This document shows positions 31,382-39,615 of a stretch of 58,712 bases of DNA, piece by piece (position 1 is the stretch's first letter; each line of letters starts with the position of its first letter). This DNA is from a virus. The position numbers were made by a program, and so were the translations under genes. Under the pieces are notes generated by a model. The model worked only from the letters and a program-made list of their open reading frames with translations, searched no databases and was not told where the DNA came from. Where the stretch lies: positions 1-58,712 of the IMG/VR virus record IMGVR_UViG_3300042397_003130. One strand, written 5' to 3'.

Positions 31382-31474
31382 ATGGACGGAGGAAACATAG
31401 CGTATTATTGGATAGCAGCAGTTGTTACCTTAGCATTGTATTTAATCATAGAAGAATATAAAAGAGATAAGTAA
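31382..31474 (+). CDS. 30-residue single-pass membrane microprotein
   Basis: ATG at 31382, stop TAA 31472-31474, overlapping the start of the next gene (TAATG). The product has one membrane helix (YYWIAAVVTLALYLII) and a charged end (EEYKRDK). With the neighbouring 31-residue protein it forms a pair of tiny membrane proteins. Function unknown. Confidence 0.55.
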   Translation: MDGGNIAYYWIAAVVTLALYLIIEEYKRDK

Positions 31475-32049
31475 TGAAGAGATCGGAACTAGTACAGTTA
31501 ATAAAAGAAGAACTTAATATACAGGATAACGGACCAGAAGAAGCACAGTTTGATACAGACTTAATGGCAACTGCTAACGGTATTGCAACAGCAATAGGGT
31601 CTGAATTGAAGAATAAAAAGCAACAGAACGAAGGTCAGTTAGATGAAGCAATTGTAGCAACTGTAATTGCAGGAGTTTTAACAGGAAATGCACTTATAGG
31701 GTTTATTTCTAAAATGGCTGCTAAGTTAATGAAAAGACTTAACTGGAAAAAAGGAGAAGACTTTGCAGAAAAAATACACCACTGGGCACATGATAATGAA
31801 AAAGCTTTTCAATCTCCAATTAAGAGAGTGTTAGGGTTTTTTATAAAAGATCCAAATACATTAGAAACAACAACTAAAGCTATCTATGCAATTGTTATTA
31901 CAAGTATGGCAGCAGGGTATGGAGCAGAAGCAGTAAACGGATTATCAAAAGCAGAATGGTTCCAAGGAGCATTAGCCTCTTTAAAGACAGTAGCTAAAGC
32001 AGATGAAGCAATATTAAATGCATACCCAGCAATTAAATCAATACTATAA
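31474..32049 (+). CDS. Leader-bearing membrane-active protein (candidate internal head protein)
   Basis: A 191-residue protein starting MKRSELVQLIKEELNIQD, a class B leader with I10-K-E12 in the gp21 cleavage style. After a soluble segment come two hydrophobic helices, about residues 57-79 (LDEAIVATVIAGVLTGNALI) and 134-152 (KAIYAIVITSMAAGYGAE), with a basic amphipathic stretch between (KMAAKLMKRLNWKK). If packaged in the head and trimmed, such a protein could insert into the host membrane at injection. This role is inference; the leader and helices are visible. Confidence 0.65.
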   Translation: MKRSELVQLIKEELNIQDNGPEEAQFDTDLMATANGIATAIGSELKNKKQQNEGQLDEAIVATVIAGVLTGNALIGFISKMAAKLMKRLNWKKGEDFAEKIHHWAHDNEKAFQSPIKRVLGFFIKDPNTLETTTKAIYAIVITSMAAGYGAEAVNGLSKAEWFQGALASLKTVAKADEAILNAYPAIKSIL

Positions 32050-32059
32050 CACATATATA

Positions 32060-32464
32060 ATGAAAAAATCTGAATTAAAAAGAATCATCCAAGAAGAATT
32101 AAAAGGATATTCAAAATATGCTCCAGGTGGAGAGACTAAAGGAGGTACTACAGATGATTTTAGAAACATCTTAACAACAATTGCAAAGCAAGGTACCGAA
32201 GAAAAGGAATCTGTTTCTGAAGAAGCTTCTAATATACAAAGACTTGATATTAGCTATACTTTCCCAAACCAGAGATTCTACTCAATAAATGTAGATAATA
32301 AGAAAATATCTAACTACCAAGAAGCAAACCAAATCATAAATAATCTTACAGGATTAGATCTTCCAGAAAGAGCTGATTACACTGACCCTGAAGTATCTAA
32401 AATTGTAGATGCTTTAAAAGCAAAAGGTATTCAAGCTGGTTCTTACGAAATGGATATAACCTAA
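32060..32464 (+). CDS. Leader-bearing hypothetical protein (candidate internal head protein)
   Basis: I use the ATG at 32060, where MKKSELKRIIQEELKG matches the class B leaders; an upstream ATG at 32018 would add 14 residues read across the previous stop. The product has 134 residues: leader (I10-Q-E12), a Gly-rich linker with KGGTTDDF, and a C-terminal alpha/beta segment (DISYTFPNQRFYSINVDNKK). No catalytic motif is visible. Grouped with the internal head candidates because of its leader. Confidence 0.65.
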   Translation: MKKSELKRIIQEELKGYSKYAPGGETKGGTTDDFRNILTTIAKQGTEEKESVSEEASNIQRLDISYTFPNQRFYSINVDNKKISNYQEANQIINNLTGLDLPERADYTDPEVSKIVDALKAKGIQAGSYEMDIT

Positions 32465-32470
32465 GAATAA

Positions 32471-32914
32471 ATGATTAGCATCTACAGAATACTAAAAGAG
32501 GTAATCACACCAACTCAAGAATACCAAGAACTTGTTAACGATATTGTTGATCAAGGAGGAGAGTATTTAGGAGAAGGAGATTATGGAGCAGTATTCTTAG
32601 TAGGAAATAAAGTAAAAAAAGTAACTACTGATTCAGAAGAATTAGAAGATGCACAGCAAATAAAAGGACAAAAGACTAAATACTTTGTATACATATACGA
32701 TGTAGAGGTTAGAAATCCAAAACTAGGAATCATCACAATGGATAATCTAGAACCTTTTACAGGATCTGAACAAGATGTTCCAATTGATGATATAATGGAA
32801 GAAGCAGAAATGTTAGGAATATATCCAGACTTAGAAGGACCAGGAGGTTCAATTAAGATGGATAACATAATGCAAGATAGGTATTATGGTAATATAAAAG
32901 TAATAGACGTATAA
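32471..32914 (+). CDS. Miniature protein-kinase-like protein
   Basis: A 147-residue protein. The opening MISIYRILKEVITP is leader-like (I7-L-K-E10). Residues 32-52 (YLGEGDYGAVFLVGNKVKKVT) carry the glycine-rich loop of kinases (G34, G36, G39, V41) and a candidate ATP-binding lysine (K49/K50). IITMDNLEPF (87-96) is placed like a hinge. Near the end KMDNIMQD and GNIKVIDV resemble the catalytic Asn and the DFG aspartate (N132, D146), but the HRD motif is missing and the protein stops where a normal kinase has its activation segment. So it looks like a reduced, perhaps inactive kinase fold. It is coupled to the next gene by a TAATG overlap. Confidence 0.55.
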   Translation: MISIYRILKEVITPTQEYQELVNDIVDQGGEYLGEGDYGAVFLVGNKVKKVTTDSEELEDAQQIKGQKTKYFVYIYDVEVRNPKLGIITMDNLEPFTGSEQDVPIDDIMEEAEMLGIYPDLEGPGGSIKMDNIMQDRYYGNIKVIDV

Positions 32915-33624
32915 TGGAAAACACATTTGACTTAAGAAAATTCTTAGTAGAGAATAAATTAACAAACAATTCTAAATTATTAAGCGAAAATAAGGTAGAA
33001 GGTATCGACTTAGCTTTAGTAAGAGGTTTAATAAATAAACCGGAAGTACAAAAGCTGCAGGATACATTAGCAAACAATCCTCAATTAGCTAAACAAGCAG
33101 CAAAGGTAGCAGCTAACATAGTAGACGGTGACTTTAAAGCACCAGAGAATATTAGTGAAGCATTTTCTCCTGAAGAAATTAAAACCGCCGAAGAACTTGG
33201 AGTAGTTAGGTCAAAATACGACTCAGACAAAGCATATGAAGATATGGTACGTTTTGCAAATGAAAAACAAAGGCAGTATTCAGGCGGTAAATCATCCGGT
33301 CCTAATGCCGAGTATTCTGCATACCATGATAATCCTTCAGGACGTAAAGAAAAAGATAAAACAATCGTACAGATACTAAGAAGTGCAGGAGCAGGAGCAG
33401 CATTAACAACTCTTATAGCACCATTAATAATGGCAGGTACAATTGGAGCTGGAGCAGCAGCATTGCCAATAGTTGCAGCGGCAGTAATAGTAGGTGCTTT
33501 AGCTGGAATAGGGGCAGGAGCAGCAGCAACAGATGGCTTTACTAGAAACTCAGTAATAGCGGAAGAGGATGTAGATCTAGCAGGGCAAGTGCAAGCTATA
33601 ATAGATGCAGGAAGAAAGATGTAA
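32914..33624 (+). CDS. Leader-bearing hydrophobic protein (candidate internal head protein)
   Basis: A 236-residue protein with a class A leader: MENTFDLRKFLVENKLTNNS and L23-S-E25 at the cleavage-like position. Residues about 157-206 are a Gly/Ala-rich hydrophobic hairpin (AGAGAALTTLIAPLIMAGTI and IVAAAVIVGALAGIGAGAAA) of the kind seen in membrane-inserting or pore-forming proteins. Just after it lies I215-A-E217|E, matching the gp21 rule exactly. The middle is charged and soluble. It is followed by a terminator. Membrane insertion at injection is plausible but not shown. Confidence 0.65.
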   Translation: MENTFDLRKFLVENKLTNNSKLLSENKVEGIDLALVRGLINKPEVQKLQDTLANNPQLAKQAAKVAANIVDGDFKAPENISEAFSPEEIKTAEELGVVRSKYDSDKAYEDMVRFANEKQRQYSGGKSSGPNAEYSAYHDNPSGRKEKDKTIVQILRSAGAGAALTTLIAPLIMAGTIGAGAAALPIVAAAVIVGALAGIGAGAAATDGFTRNSVIAEEDVDLAGQVQAIIDAGRKM

Positions 33625-36891: not shown

Positions 36892-39615
36892 ATGTCAGGA
36901 GTAGCAGGAGGAAATAGAATCGAAAGAGGGGATGTACATAATACATTCAACAAATACGTAGAAGAAGTTCTAAGTAAAATACCAGGCTTTAAAAAAGCTT
37001 CTCTATCAGGATCTGTTAAAGCAGGTACAAAAGCTGACTTTGGAGACTTAGACATCATTGTATGGTTTGAAGGAGATGATAAGAGAGAAGTTAAACAAAG
37101 ACTTATCGATGCAGCTCTAGCTCTTCCGCAGAACATAATTGTACCTTTTAAATCAGAAAAATATACAGGAAGAAGGTACTATAACTCAGGTGAACTAATC
37201 TCAGTACTCTATCCAATTGTAGGAAAAGAAGATCAATACATTCAGGTTGATAATATTATATCTCTTACAGAAGAAGAGCATGCATTTAAAGGATCATTCT
37301 TAGACTTACCAGCTGAAAAGCAAGGACTATTAATAGGACTGGCAAAAGTAATCTTACTTGAACAAGACCCACAAGATGTATTTAGAAGAATGGGTATATC
37401 AAATGTACCTAATCTAGAAAAAGGTGAAGAGTTTGAATTTAACTTATCATCGGTAAAACTGTCTTTAAGAAAAGTAAAACTAGAAAACTTTAGAGAAATA
37501 GCAAGAGAAGAGGTATGGTCAACAACAGCTTGGGGTACTATTAAGATATTATTTAAAGGATTTAATATAGATGGTTCTTTCGAAGATCTATTAGATGATG
37601 TTGCTAAAAAACTTACAAATGCTAGATCTAAAAATAGAATAGCAGGTATTTTTAAATCAATGGTATCTGTTAAATCAGGAGAGGTTGGAACAGCCAAAGG
37701 AAAAGGTAAAGAAGATGCATTAGAAAAAGTAGCACAAACACTTGCAGAAGCTTTAGATGATGGATCTGAAGTAGTAGCACTTTATGCTGGAGGATTTAAA
37801 CCACCGCATTTAGCTCACTTTGAAAATGCTAAATTCCTATCTACTAAAGCAGATAAAATTGTAATATTTATCGGACCTAAGATTAGAGAAGGTGTAAAAA
37901 TTACAGCAGAACAATCAAAAGCTATTTGGGAAATCTATGCAAAATACATAAATGTACCAATGGAGATTGTAATCAGTAAAGTAACTCCAATATTAGATAC
38001 ATATGAATGGATTGATGCAAATCAAGACAAAGTAACAAACATTATTACAGGAGCTATGGCTGATGAAATGGGTAAATTCTCTGGAATAGAAAAGAAAAAG
38101 CAGAAAGGTGAATACAGTAACGTAGAAGTAAAAGAATTACCTGTCATCACAAACAAAGAGGACGATAAATTCTCAGCAACTGATATTAGAAAGTCGGAAA
38201 AGTTCTTATTAGAAGGTAAATGGATTCCAAAAGTAGTATCAAAAGAAGATAAGCAAGTAATCATAGATATCATAGCACCACAGCAAGAAGATTCAGTAGA
38301 AGATAAAATGTTAACTGCGGTAGATAATGTATTTGAAAGTTTCTTTCCAAAGAAAGTTAAGAAAGAAGTAATAAAAGAAGGATCAGCAGGAACACCAATA
38401 CAGCCATCAGGAGCTATTCCATCAAAAGATAGAGAAGATTTAATAGAACTTTTCGATCAATTAAGAACAACTATTGATTCAGACAAATATACAGTAGTAT
38501 TTGAGCAAGATAGAATAGGAGTGTACATAAAAACGTATGCAGATGTAAGCTTTGATCAAACACCTCAACAAAAGAGACTACCAGAAGGAGCAGAGCAGGA
38601 AAAATTTAACTATACACCATACATAGCATCTCTTTTAGAGTATATGATAGATCAGAAGATGAATATTACACCATTACCGGAAGTAAAAATAAGGTATGAC
38701 GAAAAACAAGCAAACGACTTCTTTGGTAAAACAGCTTACTATGATCCAACCAAGCAAGAAGTAGTACTCTATGTAATGAATAGACATCCTAAAGATGTTT
38801 GTAGATCATTCTCTCATGAAATGATTCACCATATGCAAAACATGGAAGGAAGACTTGAAGGATTAGCTGGAACTACTAATACAAACGAGGACGATTACTT
38901 ACAAGAGATAGAAAAAGAAGCTTACCTAAAAGGTAATATCACATTCAGAAATTGGGAAGACGGATTAAAAAATAATAATAAAGAGGTTATGGCAGAAGGA
39001 AGGTATGATACAATAACAAACCGAGTTAGTAGTGTTATTTTCAATCACTGGAAAAGAGAAGTAGAAGAAGGTAGTAAACTCACCAGTTTTAGTGAATTTA
39101 TTGAATCAGATGACTTAGCTTTCGATGTACAGGCTACACTAGTACTAAAACCAGGTACTAAGAAACTTAAAGTAGACGGAGGAGCAGACTACTCACCAGA
39201 AGGAGAATATGATGATGCTATTATGGTAACTTTCCAAATTGATCCTGCAATGCTACCTGAATTTTGGGAAGAAATTTCCATGAATCTAAAAGATGTTATT
39301 AGACATGAAATAGAGCATTTAACTCATAGTGATTCTGATAACCTAAAATCAGGTAAGTACATGGAAGATGATCAGTACATACGAGATTTAGTCAAACTAA
39401 AATTGTTAAAAAACAAAGAGTACTTTCTTTTACCAAAAGAAGTAGATGCAAACCTACAAGGAATGTACCTTAGAGCTAAAAAAGAAAAAAGACCATTTGC
39501 AGATGTTGTAAACACATACTTAGATGCTCAAAAAATTACATCTAAGGAAAAAGAAGAGATACTAACATTATGGCGTAAGAGATTACCTGCATTAGGGTTA
39601 AAACAAACATTATAA
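36892..39615 (+). CDS. Fusion: NTase, NadD/cytidylyltransferase-like domain and two HExxH metallopeptidase-like domains
   Basis: A 907-residue protein. (a) Residues 1-130: NTase core with G40-S41, D52-L-D54 and D120 (IQVDNI). (b) About 295-450: NMNAT/cytidylyltransferase-like domain with HxxH at H306-L-A-H309 (GGFKPPHLAHFENAKFL) and S428-A-T-D-I-R433 matching the (S/T)xxxR-type second motif. (c) About 520-690: metallopeptidase-like domain with H642-E-M-I-H646 and a downstream E(x)EA-type ligand. (d) About 710-907: second HExxH, H805-E-I-E-H809, followed by KEVDANL. Gp21-type sites I494-K-E496|G and M700-A-E702|G lie between b/c and c/d. The combination is unusual; a polyprotein cut into separate enzymes is possible. 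Confidence 0.75.
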   Translation: MSGVAGGNRIERGDVHNTFNKYVEEVLSKIPGFKKASLSGSVKAGTKADFGDLDIIVWFEGDDKREVKQRLIDAALALPQNIIVPFKSEKYTGRRYYNSGELISVLYPIVGKEDQYIQVDNIISLTEEEHAFKGSFLDLPAEKQGLLIGLAKVILLEQDPQDVFRRMGISNVPNLEKGEEFEFNLSSVKLSLRKVKLENFREIAREEVWSTTAWGTIKILFKGFNIDGSFEDLLDDVAKKLTNARSKNRIAGIFKSMVSVKSGEVGTAKGKGKEDALEKVAQTLAEALDDGSEVVALYAGGFKPPHLAHFENAKFLSTKADKIVIFIGPKIREGVKITAEQSKAIWEIYAKYINVPMEIVISKVTPILDTYEWIDANQDKVTNIITGAMADEMGKFSGIEKKKQKGEYSNVEVKELPVITNKEDDKFSATDIRKSEKFLLEGKWIPKVVSKEDKQVIIDIIAPQQEDSVEDKMLTAVDNVFESFFPKKVKKEVIKEGSAGTPIQPSGAIPSKDREDLIELFDQLRTTIDSDKYTVVFEQDRIGVYIKTYADVSFDQTPQQKRLPEGAEQEKFNYTPYIASLLEYMIDQKMNITPLPEVKIRYDEKQANDFFGKTAYYDPTKQEVVLYVMNRHPKDVCRSFSHEMIHHMQNMEGRLEGLAGTTNTNEDDYLQEIEKEAYLKGNITFRNWEDGLKNNNKEVMAEGRYDTITNRVSSVIFNHWKREVEEGSKLTSFSEFIESDDLAFDVQATLVLKPGTKKLKVDGGADYSPEGEYDDAIMVTFQIDPAMLPEFWEEISMNLKDVIRHEIEHLTHSDSDNLKSGKYMEDDQYIRDLVKLKLLKNKEYFLLPKEVDANLQGMYLRAKKEKRPFADVVNTYLDAQKITSKEKEEILTLWRKRLPALGLKQTL

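What the first reader, a model, noticed from the sequence alone, without database searches (positions are those of the whole stretch)
32471..32914. Kinase-like protein reduced to 147 residues with leader-like start
Glycine-rich loop (G34, G36, G39), a Lys pair, a hinge-like IITMDNLEP and a terminal GNIKVIDV imitate a kinase, but HRD and everything after the DFG-equivalent are missing. The MISIYRILKE start resembles the packaging leaders. A delivered mini-kinase or a kinase decoy would be new.
Basis: partly seen in the sequence, partly recalled or inferred. Interest (0 to 1): 0.62.

Follow-up and report, generated by a model that had tools for sequence, protein, structure and literature searches.

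The report
Phage mini-kinase with capsid-packaging leader
A 147-residue protein of a Flavobacterium phage is built like the ATP-binding half of a protein kinase, ends where T7's proven kinase domain also ends, and starts with a tag like the one that puts T4 proteins inside the phage head, so it may be a kinase carried in the virion and injected into the host; activity and packaging are both untested.

Summary
The ORF is real and conserved: about 40 IMG/VR contigs and Flavobacterium phage immuto carry it, at 140-147 aa, intact copies always ending ...IDV-stop. It is no decayed fragment of a longer local gene. AlphaFold (pLDDT 88.7, pTM 0.82, five models agreeing) gives a kinase fold. All 50 listed PDB matches are protein kinases or pseudokinases, with V147 at the DFG Phe. 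Glycine loop, beta-3 Lys (K50), an acidic alpha-C, the catalytic-loop Asn (N132) and the DFG Asp (D146) are conserved. The HRD-type Asp is not at its usual place: N132-5 is variable, and the nearest invariant Asp (D120) lies 12 residues before N132. The missing lobe is not new in itself: T7 gp0.7-type kinases, proven enzymes, also lose kinase similarity at ...TDP, and the two families match by profile (prob 96%; 60 column shuffles at most 8%). The leader MISIYRILKE fits the T4 IPIII capsid-targeting sequence at every position known to matter (4, 7, 8, E10). Such leaders are enriched in immuto (14 seen, 3.0 expected) and stand on the neighbouring genes. Best reading: a probably packaged, gp0.7-like mini-kinase. 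A decoy is not supported but not excluded. No kinase assay or virion proteomics is known here.

The parts
32471..32914 (+). Kinase-fold ORF, 147 aa, ATG to TAA
   Evidence: conserved at 140-147 aa in about 40 viral contigs; immuto26A_178 in MW353175
32471..32500 (+). Leader MISIYRILKE (residues 1-10): putative capsid-targeting sequence with a (L/I)-x-E cleavage motif
   Evidence: E10 invariant; pLDDT of residues 1-10 averages 42; same motif and E10 as T4 IPIII; enriched at N-termini in immuto
32570..32587 (+). Glycine-rich loop G34-E-G36-D-Y-G39 between beta-1 and beta-2
32618..32620 (+). K50, beta-3 lysine equivalent
   Evidence: invariant, in strand 47-52
32633..32662 (+). Helix 55-64, alpha-C equivalent, with invariant E57 and E59
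32729..32755 (+). I87-P95, end of beta-5 and hinge-like segment
32825..32839 (+). P119-D-L-E-G123: candidate displaced catalytic Asp D120
   Evidence: P119, D120, E122, G123 invariant; role inferred
32855..32866 (+). K129-M-D-N132: catalytic-loop end with Mg-binding Asn
   Evidence: N132 invariant; the C-terminal profile hits only PKC/Akt at this place in PDB, E 0.03-0.23
32867..32911 (+). I133-V147: beta-7/beta-8 and DFG-position Asp D146; the protein ends one residue later
   Evidence: V147 aligns to DFG Phe of CDK2, CHK1, MEK1, Aurora A, IRAK4
31474..32049 (+). Neighbour with leader MKRSELVQLIKEE
32060..32464 (+). Neighbour with leader MKKSELKRIIQEE; a gene with this kind of start lies directly upstream in most relatives
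32914..33624 (+). Neighbour with leader MENTFDLRKFLVENK; differs or is absent in relatives

Best explanation
This is a miniature kinase-fold protein of the T7 gp0.7 style: N-lobe, hinge, a short helix, and the loop that carries the Mg-binding Asn and the DFG-position Asp, with no activation segment or helical C-lobe. SHOWN by computation: the predicted fold, the conserved ATP/Mg residues, the fixed end, and the profile match to gp0.7 kinases. INFERRED, moderately supported: the first 10 residues target the protein to the prohead core and are cut off after E10 by the phage's prohead protease, so that the mature protein (V11-V147) is packed in the head and enters the host with the DNA. INFERRED, about even odds: it binds Mg-ATP and phosphorylates host proteins at the start of infection, as gp0.7 and JSS1_004 do after early expression, with D120 acting as the displaced catalytic Asp.
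For: Phage kinases in BFVD, E down to 2.3e-7. Profile match to gp0.7 kinase domains with shuffle controls. C-terminal profile hits only PKC/Akt at K..N.M.D..G.IK..D. Leader: T4 IPIII CTS is 10 residues, targeting at residues 4 and 7, processing at 8 and 10, cut after L/I-x-E (PMC9026906); same motif with E10 in the T4 record; 14 N-terminal motifs seen, 3.0 expected in immuto, p 3.7e-6; neighbours carry them too; immuto has a prohead protease, Gp20 and Gp23. Proven activity of the kind: T7PK (PMC4858673), JSS1_004 (PMC12345140).
Against: No Asp at the HRD position counted from N132; a 7-residue insertion must be assumed. Everything after the DFG Asp is missing, even the short tail that gp0.7-type proteins have (8 residues in P14, 19 in Munch). 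No Pfam, PHROG or NCBIfam hit. Profile homology is carried mostly by the N-lobe; the C-terminal part alone gives only 37%. The leader motif was fixed after seeing some of the leaders, so its p-value is optimistic. T4 ipI does not fit the motif as written. No virion proteomics.
Confidence: 0.45

Rival explanations
1. Packaged or cytoplasmic pseudokinase: it binds nucleotide, or only folds like a kinase, and acts by binding a host protein, for instance blocking a host or defence kinase.
For: No Asp at N132-5, where the residue is S, L, R, K or M; the substrate-binding lobe is absent; the pseudokinase TYK2 JH2 is among the Foldseek matches, though so are active kinases.
Against: K50, N132, D146 and the glycine loop are kept in divergent relatives, more than a surface mimic needs. 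gp0.7 has the same truncated layout and is active.
Confidence: 0.33
2. gp0.7-like kinase made in the cell after infection and not packaged; the leader-like start is only an N-terminal helix or a regulatory segment.
For: T7 gp0.7 works by early expression (PMC4858673). Leader similarity is short, and the leader diverges faster than the domain in most pairs.
Against: E10 invariant and spacing as in T4 IPIII; leader not folded with the domain (pLDDT about 42); clustering with other leader-bearing genes.
Confidence: 0.18
3. Remnant of a once full-length kinase, drifting to loss.
For: Two contigs, L028 and L032, hold frameshifted or stopped copies.
Against: Fixed length and C-terminus, and pN/pS 0.26-0.61, across divergent relatives; no C-lobe follows downstream, and the next gene differs between relatives.
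Confidence: 0.04

Closest known systems
T7 gp0.7 serine/threonine kinase family (PHROGs 15752 and 2828; includes JSS1_004)
   Same: N-lobe with glycine loop and VxK, minimal catalytic loop with N-x-M, kinase similarity ending at the DFG-position Asp (TDP there, IDV here); profile match prob 96%
   Different: gp0.7 keeps D-x-H-x-x-N spacing, has more residues between hinge and catalytic loop, and usually a tail or C-terminal shut-off domain; ours has PDLEG 12 residues before N, a packaging-like leader, and lies among leader-bearing genes
T4 internal proteins (IPIII, Alt) with capsid-targeting sequence
   Same: 10-residue leader, hydrophobic at 4, 7, 8, Glu at 10; T4-type portal, protease and major capsid genes in the relative
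   Different: Cargo is kinase-like, not IP or ADP-ribosyltransferase; packaging not demonstrated
Eukaryotic-type protein kinases (CDK, MEK, CaMK, PKC/Akt)
   Same: Fold of the first half, register from glycine loop to DFG
   Different: No activation segment and no alpha-F to alpha-I; HRD Asp not at its usual spacing

Membership tests
Protein-kinase fold (N-lobe and catalytic/Mg loop) | Five-stranded N-lobe with alpha-C, hinge, beta-7/beta-8 | tested here: met
   predicted model only:
Protein-kinase fold (N-lobe and catalytic/Mg loop) | GxGxxG, beta-3 Lys, acidic alpha-C | tested here: met
   G36, G39, K50, E57, E59 invariant, G34 nearly so; the Lys-Glu contact itself was not measured
Protein-kinase fold (N-lobe and catalytic/Mg loop) | Catalytic-loop Asn and DFG-position Asp with usual spacing | tested here: met
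   N132 and D146 invariant; 13 residues apart in most relatives, 14 in the window; aligned to PKC/Akt and to the DFG of many kinases
Active protein kinase | HRD/HxD catalytic Asp five residues before the Asn | tested here: not met
   N132-5 is variable; D120, 12 before, is invariant and may replace it, but geometry could not be measured
Canonical (full-length) protein kinase | Activation segment and helical C-lobe after DFG | tested here: not met
   Protein ends at V147 in all intact relatives
T7 gp0.7-type phage kinase | Profile similarity to gp0.7 kinase domains | tested here: met
   prob 96%, shuffles at most 8.1%
T7 gp0.7-type phage kinase | D-x-H-x-x-N-x-M ... TDP signature | tested here: not met
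   N-x-M and terminal Asp kept; D-x-H absent, TDP replaced by IDV
T7 gp0.7-type phage kinase | Phosphotransferase activity | not testable with these tools
   needs purified protein
T4-type CTS-bearing internal protein | About 10-residue leader with L/I-x-E and hydrophobic 4 and 7 | tested here: met
   in some relatives the leader is 9 residues
T4-type CTS-bearing internal protein | Present and cut in the virion | not testable with these tools
   no proteomics held

The most novel reading that the evidence does not exclude
Immuto-like T4-type phages of Flavobacterium pack a 137-residue kinase in the head and inject it with the DNA: a virion-delivered kinase, the counterpart of T4 Alt, with a displaced catalytic Asp and almost nothing after the DFG Asp, which would be about the smallest working kinase fold.
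Probability: 0.3. Interest if true: 0.75.

Novelty: new variant of a known kind. Interest (0 to 1): 0.52.

Why it matters
A kinase delivered inside the head could modify host defence or transcription before any phage gene is expressed. It would extend the T4 internal-protein idea (Alt, IPI) to phosphorylation, and test how small a kinase can be and still work. It also proposes a function for a gene annotated 'hypothetical' in an isolated, culturable phage, so the tests can be done.

Tried and rejected
Library searches of the single protein (Pfam, PHROGs, NCBIfam, PDB by sequence) gave nothing significant. Bacterial and archaeal genomes: no relative (one scan with two short peptide patterns, so distant relatives could be missed). 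tblastn of distant members in phages found only immuto plus chance hits. Full-length relatives in other phages: none found in this family; all intact copies end at IDV. A C-lobe in a downstream gene was rejected because the next gene differs between relatives. Aminoglycoside-kinase-type folds are not in the listed matches, which does not exclude kinship. The Ralstonia phage RSB1 record was not in the collection.

Full report
1. The observation. ORF 32471-32914 (+) encodes 147 aa in a 58.7-kb IMG/VR virus record. Relatives: 31 loci by direct search, more with profiles; in isolates only the four Flavobacterium phage immuto records, 92.5% identical, annotated 'hypothetical protein'. Every intact copy is 146-147 aa, or 140 aa as measured from an uncertain start, and ends IDV-stop. 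Two contigs (L028, L032) carry broken copies. Selection is purifying, pN/pS 0.26-0.61.

2. Fold. With 19 sequences AlphaFold gave pLDDT 81; with 24, pLDDT 88.7, pTM 0.82, all five models 87.0-88.7. The order is helix 16-27, beta 31-36, 39-44, 47-52, helix 55-64, beta 75-82, 85-91, helix 105-115, beta 133-135, 142-144: the kinase N-lobe, hinge, one helix, beta-7/beta-8. Foldseek against PDB: all 50 listed rows are protein kinases or pseudokinases, best E 3.5e-5, prob 1.00. VIA-align: Z up to 9.6 (rmsd 3.9, 115 residues), modest on that scale (a best Z of 7-8 is typical for models without a clear match), but the register is telling: V147 falls on the DFG Phe of CDK2 (146), CHK1 (149), MEK1 (209), Aurora A (275), IRAK4 (330) (which residues are the DFG is general knowledge). 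A profile of the last 48 residues hits 35 PDB sequences at E up to 10, all PKC or Akt, all at the segment aligned as LKLDNVMLDSEGHIKIAD; each E is weak (0.03-0.23) and they are related to each other.

3. Active-site residues (24 sequences). Invariant: G36, G39, K50, E57, E59, D120, N132, D136, G140, D146. G34 is nearly invariant. The Asp expected five residues before N132 is not there (S, L, R, K or M at 127). P119, D120, E122 and G123 are invariant. In both models residues 122 and 128 are isolated strand or bridge residues, compatible with a small hairpin inserted between D120-L121 and K129, which would put D120 near the catalytic position.

4. Kinship with T7 gp0.7. BFVD matches include several phage protein kinases. 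Reading T7 gp0.7 and ten relatives shows that their kinase similarity also stops at the DFG-position Asp (...TDP), followed by a tail of 8 residues (P14), 19 (Munch) or a longer C-terminal part. Profile-profile alignment of our family with these domains: prob 96.0 local, 96.8 global, the ends coinciding; 60 column shuffles reach at most 8.1, the reversed profile 0. The C-terminal part alone gives 37%. T7PK is a proven kinase (PMC4858673); so is the kinase domain of JSS1_004, which inactivates defence proteins (PMC12345140). So the missing C-lobe does not argue against activity by itself.

5. Leader. T4 IPIII needs only its first 10 residues for packaging; residues 4 and 7 serve targeting, 8 and 10 processing; the protease cuts after L/I-x-E (PMC9026906). 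MISIYRILKE fits, with E10 invariant in the family; the T4 record shows the same motif with E10 in IPIII, not in IPI. In immuto, 14 of 230 proteins carry the motif with Glu at 8-15 against 3.0 expected (p 3.7e-6); the motif was refined after seeing some leaders, so the p-value is optimistic. In the window the ORFs at 31474, 32060, 32471 and 32914 form a run of four, and several more follow. In relatives the gene directly upstream usually starts with an MK[KR]S-type leader, while the downstream gene changes. Immuto has Gp20, Gp23 and a prohead serine protease.

6. Verdict. Kinase-like fold: about 0.93. gp0.7-type kinship: about 0.75. Packaging: about 0.6. Phosphotransferase activity: about 0.45-0.5. 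Membership in gp0.7 proper is not claimed, because the D-x-H-x-x-N signature is not met; it works like one if D120 takes the catalytic role. No paper on a kinase packaged in a phage head was found in the searches made, which cover open-licence PMC papers only.

Noticed in passing
window 8346, 31474, 32060, 32914, 35483, 39629, 41177, 42104, 45502, 53077 (+ strand starts): Many other ORFs start with packaging-like leaders of three kinds (MKKSELxxIIKEE, MENFDLKKFLVENKLT, MKLLQLLKEA); the cargo includes a 5'-nucleotidase-like protein.
   Followed up: partly
L028 and L032, kinase ORF: Broken copies of the kinase gene (stop after S55; frameshift) in otherwise syntenic contigs; could be sequencing error or real loss.
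   Followed up: no
L068 and L069, kinase start: No ATG in the usual place: the reading frame runs on upstream and the start codon is unclear; the LLKE motif is kept.
   Followed up: partly
L022-L025 against L015, residues 1-12: Leaders differ strongly (pN 0.41) while the domain is close (pN 0.07), as if leaders were exchanged as modules.
   Followed up: partly
L092 (MW353175 1-50000): Immuto encodes a 7-deazaguanine DNA-modification set (QueC/D/E/F, FolE, DpdA) and its own GroEL/GroES.
   Followed up: no
window 36892-39615: 907-aa protein annotated NMN adenylyltransferase in immuto, with HEMIHH and HEIEH motifs that look like further metallopeptidase-like parts.
   Followed up: no
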